Shown here in pieces: positions 47,318 to 48,611 of a DNA stretch of 64,000 nucleotides. Location: contig SAJS01000009.1 of the NCBI GenBank assembly GCA_004017535.1, positions 124,001 through 188,000 on the forward strand, written 5' to 3'. Below the pieces are notes generated by a model, which did not search any database, had not been told where the DNA came from, and worked only from the letters and a program-made list of their open reading frames with translations. Position numbers and translations under genes: made by a program. This DNA is from Mesorhizobium sp. GTDB lineage: Bacteria; Pseudomonadota; Alphaproteobacteria; Rhizobiales; Rhizobiaceae. Positions within the stretch are counted from its first letter, which is position 1. Each line of letters opens with the position of its first letter.

Positions 47318-47365
47318 TTCCTTCCCCCCTTGTGGGGGAAGGTGGCCGCGCAGCGGCCGGATGAG
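47318..47365. repeat. Rhizobial palindromic repeat, left half cut by the IS
   Basis: CCCCCTTGTGGGGGAAGG followed by GGCCGCGCAGCGGCC and GGATGAG. It is the start of a repeat unit whose continuation GGGTGTTGG reappears at 48515, after the IS. Confidence 0.7.
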
Positions 47366-47380
47366 CGACTATCTGCGGTG

Positions 47381-48319
47381 TCAAGTTGCATTTGCGAACT
47401 GTTTGCGCGCGTCGCGTGCTTTTGCATTGAGGATGACGAGCAGCTTCCTGGCGAGCGCAATGCGGATGACCATCTTTTCCTTTCCAGCCGCCTGCAACCG
47501 TTGCTTGAAGGCGGCGAGATGCGGATCATATTTGGCAACGATGCTGGCAACGAGGAAGAGGACGCCTCGCGGCCCTGCGCGGCCACCGCGCACCGATCTT
47601 CGGCCACTGCGCTTGCCGCTGTCATTGGCGATCGGAGCCAGGCCTGCCAGCTTGGCGATGGCCCTGTTGGAGACGATGCCGATCTCAGGGAGTTGAGCCA
47701 TCAGCCTCGGCACGGTGCGAGAGGCCACGCCCTTGAGCGAGCGAAAGGCCCGGTCGAGGCATGCCCACAACGGATCATCGTCGATGAGCGAAGCGATCTC
47801 ACCCTCGAGCCTGCGGCTTTGGCGTGTGAGCAGCGCGATCACCTCATCGAGGCTGGCGATGGTCTCGGCGTCGAGGGCAGCACTCTTGCGCTGCTTTTGA
47901 ACGGTGAGATCGCCAGTCACCTGGGACAGCCGGGCAACCAACGCCTTAAGCCGCAGTTGGGCCGCATTTGGTGGCGGCATCGCCTTGAGCTGCTTGACCG
48001 CGCCATAGCGGGCGATCATGGCGGCATCGATCTTGTCGGTCTTTTCCAGGAACCCCATCGCCTCGGCGAAGTAGCGCACACTGCGGGCATTGGCCAAGCC
48101 ACAGCATACTCCCAACTCCCACAACAACAGGAAGGCCAGCCGTTCGTAACCGCCGCTGGCCTCCATGACGACAAGCTCGACGTCATGGCCCTGACACCAA
48201 GCGGCAAGGTCAGCTATGCCTGCCGCATCATTGCGGAAGCGGCCTGCCGCTCCGCTCGGCTCGACATGGGCATCGAGCCATCCCTTCGAAAAATCCACTC
48301 CACATATGATCTTGTTCAC
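47381..48319 (-). CDS. IS110-family transposase (recombinase)
   Basis: A 312-residue enzyme with the RuvC-like DEDD domain (Asp in ICGVDFSKG, Glu in VVMEASGGYE, Asp pair in TDKIDAAM) and the C-terminal Transposase_20 domain (LPEIGIVSNRAIAKLAGLAP, then DSGKRSGRRSVRGGRA with the expected catalytic Ser). Length is normal, and no stop or frameshift is seen. I chose the GTG at 48319 because the protein family starts shortly before the first catalytic Asp; the frame extends to 48352, which would overlap the predicted RNA. Confidence 0.93.
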   Translation of the reverse strand: MNKIICGVDFSKGWLDAHVEPSGAAGRFRNDAAGIADLAAWCQGHDVELVVMEASGGYERLAFLLLWELGVCCGLANARSVRYFAEAMGFLEKTDKIDAAMIARYGAVKQLKAMPPPNAAQLRLKALVARLSQVTGDLTVQKQRKSAALDAETIASLDEVIALLTRQSRRLEGEIASLIDDDPLWACLDRAFRSLKGVASRTVPRLMAQLPEIGIVSNRAIAKLAGLAPIANDSGKRSGRRSVRGGRAGPRGVLFLVASIVAKYDPHLAAFKQRLQAAGKEKMVIRIALARKLLVILNAKARDARKQFANAT

Positions 48320-48514
48320 GGTAACCTGCCTTGTGCGTGCGATTGGAGCCAAGCGACTATTCGGTCGTGCGTGACGAAGGCGAAGATCCCAGGCTCATCC
48401 ACGGTTGTGACAGGAGGGGTGTCGGGCGACTTCGCCAAGCCTCGAATCGGATGGCCGTCCGGTTCGAGGCTCAGTCGCTTCCATCGCACAAAGTCTCCTC
48501 CGTGCAGATACAAG
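48320..48514 (-). ncRNA. Predicted bridge RNA of the IS110 element
   Basis: Read on the - strand. A first hairpin is formed by GCCTCGAA/TTCGAGGC (48470-48439). Next a stem GGCGAAG/CTTCGCC (48436-48379) encloses a loop with ACACCCCT (48422-48415) and GGATGAG (48400-48394): the first equals the left target half with its core CT, the second is complementary to CTCATCC, the right half. Then ATAGTCGCT (48360-48352) equals the transposon right end plus core, and ACAAG (48334-48330) is complementary to core plus left end. Order target loop, then donor loop, is that known for IS621. Confidence 0.78.
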
Positions 48515-48611
48515 GGGTGTTGGACGGATCGCCGTCCTTGCCAAGCTGGAACACCCCTCATCCGTCTCGGCGCTGGCGCGCCGATCCACCTTCTCCCACA
48601 ACGGGAGAAGG
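48515..48611. repeat. Rhizobial palindromic repeat right of the IS
   Basis: The interrupted unit continues from 48515, with the hairpin GGACGGATCGCCGTCC at 48522-48537. A second unit in the opposite direction starts at 48548 (ACACCCCTCATCCG) and ends with CTTCTCCCACAACGGGAGAAGG near 48611. Confidence 0.7.

What the first reader, a model, noticed from the sequence alone, without database searches (positions are those of the whole stretch)
48320..48514. IS110 bridge RNA whose guides match its own insertion site
In the noncoding end of the IS, read on the transposase strand, one stem (GGCGAAG/CTTCGCC, 48436-48379) encloses ACACCCCT and GGATGAG. The IS sits in ACACCC-CT-CATCC; the first loop segment equals the left half with core CT (8 nt), the second is complementary to CTCATCC (7 nt). 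Further on, ATAGTCGCT equals the right transposon end plus core, and ACAAG pairs with core plus left end. Order and layout are those known for the IS621 bridge RNA. All four guides being present by chance is very unlikely.
Basis: partly seen in the sequence, partly recalled or inferred. Interest (0 to 1): 0.92.

Follow-up and report, generated by a model that had tools for sequence, protein, structure and literature searches.

The report
Insertion element with target-guiding RNA
A small jumping gene in a Mesorhizobium-like soil bacterium appears to carry an RNA whose two loops spell out the repeat it sits in and its own ends; it is a clean new example of the bridge-RNA transposons described in 2024, not a new kind of system.

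Summary
Window 47364-48514 (minus strand) is an intact IS110-group element: 312-aa DEDD/serine recombinase (GTG 48319), 195-nt left and 17-nt right non-coding end, CT cores. The left end encodes a predicted bridge RNA: 5' stem-loop, target loop, donor loop. All four guides match, and both handshake bases follow the IS621 rule. Across 24 aligned left ends, compensatory changes support the 5' and target-loop stems; the donor-loop stems never vary. Across 24 insertions guides covary with targets. Of 28 diverged IS110 loci, 11 match a covariance model, and 7 of those 11 match their right target 7/7. In four genomes holding both main site types, 20 of 20 copies sit in the type that their guide fits better. 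A split TTGACA-N17-TATCTG/A promoter forms across the circle junction in 24 of 24. The target is one arm of a repeated palindromic mosaic: 34 exact 13-mers in this genome. No Rfam family matches. New member of a known kind (IS621-like); transcription and activity are not shown.

The parts
47364..48514 (-). whole IS110-group insertion sequence, 1151 bp, CT core at both ends
   Evidence: ends conserved in full-length copies while flanks differ; one match in own genome at E<=0.001
47381..48319 (-). recombinase gene, GTG start at 48319 in the invariant CCGTGAAC context (312 aa); the mechanical ORF from TTG 48352 is 323 aa
   Evidence: Pfam DEDD_Tnp_IS110 4.9e-19 and Transposase_20 1.1e-11; IS621 8wt6 5.8e-28; D, E, D, D, S, G of IS621 at residues 20, 64, 106, 109, 245, 246 of the 323-aa ORF
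48315..48497 (-). predicted bridge RNA, about 180 nt; 5' end inferred from the promoter, 3' end from the donor-loop stem
   Evidence: model match 48480-48315, 200.5 bits, but this sequence is in the model; fold z -2.36, 4 of 200 shuffles fold as well
48438..48471 (-). 5' stem-loop, 13 pairs, 7 of them with compensatory changes
48379..48436 (-). target-binding loop: outer stem GGCGAAG/CTTCGCC plus inner CCC/GGG
   Evidence: outer stem 100% paired, 3 of 7 pairs changed on both sides; inner pairs never vary
48415..48422 (-). left target guide ACACCCCT
   Evidence: equals left target plus core 8/8
48394..48400 (-). right target guide GGATGAG, followed by handshake base C at 48393
   Evidence: complementary to CTCATCC 7/7; handshake bases in 24 of 24
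48316..48374 (-). donor-binding loop; stems TCACG 48374-48370 / CGTGA 48320-48316 and GACC 48366-48363 / GGTT 48326-48323; holds the GTG start codon
   Evidence: these 9 pairs never vary, so covariation does not test them
48352..48360 (-). left donor guide ATAGTCGCT
   Evidence: equals right end plus core 9/9
48330..48334 (-). right donor guide ACAAG, followed by handshake base G at 48329
   Evidence: complementary to CTTGT of the left end; invariant in 24 of 24
47379..47384 (-). -35 half TTGACA of the junction promoter, in the right end, overlapping the stop codon
   Evidence: 24 of 24 copies, spacing 17 to TAT
48505..48510 (-). -10 half TATCTG of the junction promoter, in the left end (3 of 6 bases of TATAAT)
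48515..48563 (.). rest of the palindromic target repeat; intact opposite arm with the 13-mer target at 48551-48563
47320..47363 (.). other side of the interrupted target repeat

Best explanation
An intact IS110-group element that works like IS621. Excision joins its ends into a circle, and this restores a TTGACA-N17-TATCTG promoter that reads a roughly 180-nt bridge RNA from the left end. The recombinase binds the RNA. The first loop pairs with the two halves of a chromosomal target (ACACCC-CT-CATCC) through ACACCCCT and GGATGAG. The second loop pairs with the element's own junction (ATAGTCG-CT-TGT) through ATAGTCGCT and ACAAG. Strands are exchanged at the CT core by the serine/DEDD active site. 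Shown here: gene, layout, complementarity, guide-target covariation, covarying 5' and target-loop stems, cognate target choice. Inferred from IS621: circle, transcription, RNP, donor-loop fold, chemistry, present activity.
For: Recombinase family, IS621 homology and catalytic residues. Four guides at the stated places, in no shuffle together. 24 distinct insertions: right guide matches its own target 4.83/5 outside the core versus 3.24/5 for targets of other guide types, left guide 4.42/6 versus 2.67/6, 0 of 20,000 permutations as good; 21 of 24 right targets match 5/5. In four genomes with both site types, 20 of 20 copies sit in the better-fitting type; 9 of these 20 are not among the 24. 11 of 28 diverged IS110 loci match the RNA model at E<=0.05; 7 of those 11 match their right target 7/7, with words such as CTGCC, CTGTC and CCCCC. 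Helix covariation 0.202 versus 0.063 shuffled, 0 of 500 as high. Junction promoter in 24 of 24. Handshake bases in 24 of 24.
Against: No transcript or activity data. The donor-loop stems never vary, so covariation does not test them, and neither RNAalifold nor the minimum-energy fold draws them; that fold also lacks the target-loop stem, which the centroid has. The -10 half matches TATAAT at only 3 of 6 bases. The left guide matches only 3-4 of 6 non-core bases in 15 of 24 insertions; the right guide has one mismatch in L007 and L009 and two in L049. L033 and L031 sit in deviating left halves. Of 7 further copies with no scored right flank, left flanks of L035 and L025 fit their guide poorly. 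In 7 of 11 copies with the B right guide, the left donor guide has one mismatch to its own end. Of the 11 diverged loci, L019 has one mismatch, L118 and L119 fail, and for L130 no end was found; 17 of 28 gave no RNA match at E<=0.05. Copies are related, so counts are not independent.
Confidence: 0.96

Rival explanations
1. The recombinase reads the palindromic repeat by protein-DNA or hairpin recognition; the loop words are a by-product and the non-coding end is only a regulatory leader.
For: Targets are arms or neighbours of palindromic repeats in both main lineages; specificity of IS110-family elements for REP sequences was known before the RNA was (PMC1525189, passages).
Against: Guide and target change together across seven near guide types and several diverged elements; in four genomes with both site types each lineage used only its own.
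Confidence: 0.03
2. The matches arise by chance or by shared ancestry of a few copies.
For: Short C-rich words; related copies; ACAAG occurs in 12% of shuffles.
Against: All four words together in 0 of 20,000 shuffles; matches in diverged elements with different words.
Confidence: 0.01
3. A dead relic: RNA and gene look intact but the element no longer moves. This is compatible with the best explanation of how it worked.
For: One copy in this genome.
Against: Uninterrupted gene with the catalytic residues, full guide matches and intact ends; four related genomes hold 2-7 copies each.
Confidence: 0.15

Closest known systems
IS621 (Escherichia coli, IS110 group), bridge RNA of Durrant 2024 and Hiraizumi 2024
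   Same: Layout (left-end RNA: 5' stem-loop, target loop, donor loop), CT core, guide lengths and strands, handshake logic, junction promoter, catalytic residues, palindromic repeat target. The right donor half CTTGTAT, which I deduce from the base pairs listed in the passage, is the same seven bases as here.
   Different: Different target words; recombinase distantly related (phmmer E 5.8e-28); right donor guide ACAAG pairs contiguously where IS621 has a non-canonical G-T pair and two flipped-out bases; shorter hairpin between the donor guides (compared). The IS621 RNA sequence itself was not held or aligned.
ISRm19 (Sinorhizobium meliloti, IS110 family)
   Same: Rhizobial IS110-family element, 4 of 4 copies in REP sequences (PMC1525189, passages).
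   Different: Sequence relation to this lineage not tested.
ISCro4 (PDB 9t56)
   Same: Solved IS110-family recombinase, E 8e-26.
   Different: Only the recombinase sequence was compared.
IS1111 group and seekRNA
   Same: RNA-guided DEDD recombinases of the wider family.
   Different: RNA usually lies downstream of the gene (PMC11187229, passages); here it is upstream.

Membership tests
IS110 group with bridge RNA (IS621-like) | DEDD RuvC-like domain plus C-terminal Transposase_20 domain with the catalytic serine | tested here: met
IS110 group with bridge RNA (IS621-like) | Long left non-coding end and short right end | tested here: met
   195 nt and 17 nt
IS110 group with bridge RNA (IS621-like) | 5' stem-loop and target-binding stem-loop in the left-end RNA | tested here: met
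   both stems covary across 24 aligned left ends
IS110 group with bridge RNA (IS621-like) | Donor-binding stem-loop | tested here: inconclusive
   possible stems are conserved but never vary; unconstrained folds do not draw them
IS110 group with bridge RNA (IS621-like) | Target loop guides pair with both target halves including the core | tested here: met
   exceptions under evidence against
IS110 group with bridge RNA (IS621-like) | Donor loop guides pair with the element's own junction | tested here: met
   9/9 and 5/5 in the window; one mismatch in 7 of 11 copies with the B right guide
[quoted passage not shown]
   sequence motif only, 24 of 24; -10 half is weak
IS110 group with bridge RNA (IS621-like) | RNA is expressed, binds the recombinase and directs recombination | not testable with these tools
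   needs RNA-seq and assays
IS1111 group | Guide RNA in the right end, downstream of the gene | tested here: not met
   right end is 17 nt; RNA is upstream
IS1111 group | Subterminal inverted repeats of 7-17 bp | not tested
   no search was made for them
Any Rfam 15 family | Match to a curated covariance model | tested here: not met
   0 matches at gathering score over the window and 0 at E<=1 over 48290-48540

The most novel reading that the evidence does not exclude
The GTG start codon of the recombinase lies inside the invariant 3' strand of the predicted donor-loop stem (TCACG/CGTGA). On transcripts that run on into the gene, folding of the RNA, or its capture by the recombinase, may block translation, so bridge RNA and recombinase would be mutually exclusive products of one transcript with built-in feedback.
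Probability: 0.15. Interest if true: 0.5.

Novelty: new member of a known kind. Interest (0 to 1): 0.33.

Why it matters
It is an independent natural confirmation of the guide rule: two sister lineages with different guides share a genus in which both target types exist, and in the four genomes checked each used only its own. The set offers natural right-target words (CATCC, CTCCC, CATTC; CTGCC, CTGTC, CCCCC in diverged elements) for studying how bridge RNAs are retargeted in evolution. It does not change the known mechanism.

Tried and rejected
Rfam as identifier: no match. RNAalifold on the 24 left ends recovers the 5' stem-loop and target-loop stem but draws long pairings between the RNA's 5' leader and the donor-loop region that use the left donor guide; I did not adopt these and named an IS621-like structure instead, whose donor stems are invariant and thus unproven. 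A donor hairpin TTG/CAA was tried; its middle pair is never standard, and it was dropped from the model. Orphan bridge RNAs: of 297 genomes searched with the model, 7 had matches; four loci of these, L154-L157, gave no recombinase hit at E<=1e-3 within the fetched stretch. L154 and L155 look like truncated left-end relics; L156 and L157 were not resolved. No case for RNA-only elements was made. The discontinuous IS621-type extension of the right donor guide: only the outer A could pair, by eye; not claimed. Papers: 'bridge RNA' with Mesorhizobium gave 0 papers; IS110 with RIME and Rhizobium gave 0. Both cover only the held open-access library. The name RIME for the rhizobial repeat, and the TATAAT consensus, are recalled.

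Full report
What is there. The window lies in genome G000, contig C73. G000 shares its genus with G006, whose contigs have the same lengths as the Mesorhizobium caraganae contigs, so the genus is probably Mesorhizobium. Window 47364-48514, read on the minus strand, is one intact insertion sequence of 1151 bp with a CT core at each end. Its recombinase has both IS110 Pfam domains, matches IS621 (8wt6, E 5.8e-28) and ISCro4 (9t56, E 8e-26) among solved structures, and carries the equivalents of IS621 D11, E60, D102, D105, S241 and G242. It is the only match in its own genome at E<=0.001.

The observation. Stem, both target guides and both donor guides are at the coordinates given. The target guides match the occupied site 8/8 and 7/7; the donor guides match the element's ends 9/9 and 5/5. 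In 20,000 dinucleotide shuffles the four words never occurred together; the five-base word alone is common.

Comparison of copies. Of 31 full-length copies I kept 24 with distinct flanks. They fall into seven guide types. Type A (9 copies, the window's type) has ACACCCCT and GGATGAG; seven of its nine sit in CACCC-CT-CATCC. Type B (10 copies, about 74-77% identical to the window's element) has TACCACCT and GGGAGAG; eight of its ten have left half GCCAC and nine of ten right half CTCCC; its left guide differs from that site at its first two bases. An eleventh copy, L048, has the B right guide with a slightly different left one. Rhizobium copies include L006, whose right guide is GAATGAG and whose target is CATTC. 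Outside the core the right guide matches its own target 4.83 of 5 and targets of other types 3.24 of 5; the left guide 4.42 of 6 and 2.67 of 6; none of 20,000 permutations did as well. By copy: right target 5/5 in 21, 4/5 in 2, 3/5 in 1; left target 6/6 in 5, 5/6 in 4, 4/6 in 11, 3/6 in 4. Copies that had lost one end were not scored. Of 7 such left ends viewed afterwards, most fit their guide partly; L035 and L025 fit poorly.

Choice between sites. Exact counts of the type A 13-mer and a type B 14-mer were made in twelve genomes, and copies of the left end were sought in four of them. G117 has 40 intact A sites and 3 intact B sites, yet its 7 type B copies are in B sites. G135 has 5 A and 67 B, yet both its type A copies are in A sites. 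G019 (3 A, 7 B; 4 type A copies) and G038 (17 A, 34 B; 7 type B copies) agree: 20 of 20. Three of these copies (L142, L137, L144) differ from the strict pattern at one left-half position each. Ten of the 20 are among the 24 above, one is the dropped L064, nine are new. The reversed-pattern control gave 0 in all twelve genomes for both patterns.

Wider relatives. A covariance model from 24 left ends was run on 28 loci of other IS110 recombinases, 32-39% identical over their matched stretch except the fragment L027 at 53%. It matched 11 at E<=0.05. By the coordinates all 11 lie on the recombinase strand and end within about 40 bases of the first matched recombinase codon. For these 11 I read the right guide and right flank: 7 match 7/7 (L127, L113, L108, L106, L105, L115, L109), L019 6/7, L118 and L119 fail, L130 has no recognisable end. 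Over 16 elements (6 near, 10 diverged) the match is 71 of 80 non-core bases against a permuted mean of 46.9, with 0 of 100,000 as high.

RNA structure. On the named structure 95.1% of cells pair, 10 pairs change on both sides, and the covariation score is 0.202 against 0.063 in shuffles (0 of 500 as high) and at most 0.073 when slid; the count of further pair types was reached by 10 of 500 shuffles. The support comes from the 5' stem-loop (7 of 13 pairs) and the target-loop stem (3 of 7). The donor-loop stems never vary, and RNAalifold and the minimum-energy fold draw other pairings there. The single sequence folds somewhat better than shuffles (z -2.36). No Rfam model matches.

Promoter and handshake. 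Joining each element's own ends shows TTGACA, 17 bases, then TATCTG or TATCTA across the junction in 24 of 24 copies; a junction promoter is reported for IS621 (PMC11208160, section 5). The base after the right target guide is C: it can pair with the donor G before the core but not with the target C. The base after the right donor guide is G and does the reverse. This holds in 24 of 24 and is the handshake rule of PMC11208158 (section 11). The IS621 right donor half, deduced from the pairs listed in the passages, is CTTGTAT, the same as here.

Target. The 13-mer ACACCCCTCATCC occurs 34 times in the genome, 0 for the reversed control. Of 30 loci fetched, 24 gave a centred site with flank, and 23 of these 24 have an opposing arm like GGATGAGGG or GGGTGTTGG within 75 bases upstream. 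The repeat reads as a mosaic: a short palindrome, CGGATGAGGGGTGTTCCAG, a spacer, CTGGAACACCCCTCATCCG, another palindrome. The window's element sits in one arm; the other arm is intact at 48551-48563. Insertion of IS110-family elements in REP sequences, including rhizobial ISRm19, was known (PMC1525189, passages).

Verdict. The element meets the sequence-testable features of the IS621-like IS110 group, the donor-loop fold being inconclusive. Durrant 2024 already predicted bridge RNAs in 85.7% of IS110 elements (PMC11208160, section 12), so this is a well-supported new member of a known kind. What is added is a natural two-lineage test of guide-directed target choice within one genus.

Literature seen: PMC11208160 outline with abstract and sections 5, 6, 7, 12; PMC11208158 sections 7 and 11 and found passages; PMC11187229 and PMC1525189 found passages only; other papers as search listings.

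Noticed in passing
window 48316-48320 with 48370-48374: The recombinase GTG start codon lies in the invariant predicted donor-loop stem in all 24 aligned left ends; possible coupling of RNA folding and translation.
   Followed up: partly
G117 (loci L133, L137, L140, L143, L145, L147, L149): Type B copies occupy 7 sites while only 3 exact GCCACCTCTCCCCC sites remain intact in that genome, as if the element had nearly filled its sites.
   Followed up: partly
L127: A diverged IS110 element in another genus of the family has right guide GGATGAG and sits in CTCATCCG beside a palindrome-like stretch: a different lineage on a like target.
   Followed up: partly
L154:1501-1648 and L155:1501-1607: Bridge-RNA-like left ends with no recombinase hit in the locus, probably truncated relics.
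   Followed up: partly
L108, L109: A partial left-end copy stands just upstream of the element in each (in L109 next to an N), and in L108 the right end is repeated 89 bases further on, suggesting repeated insertion or an assembly effect.
   Followed up: no
L037, L038, L048, L049, L066, L050, L067: Seven elements whose left donor guide (ACAGTCGCT) differs by one base from their own right end (ATAGTCGCT), while L036, L046, L065, L047 match.
   Followed up: no
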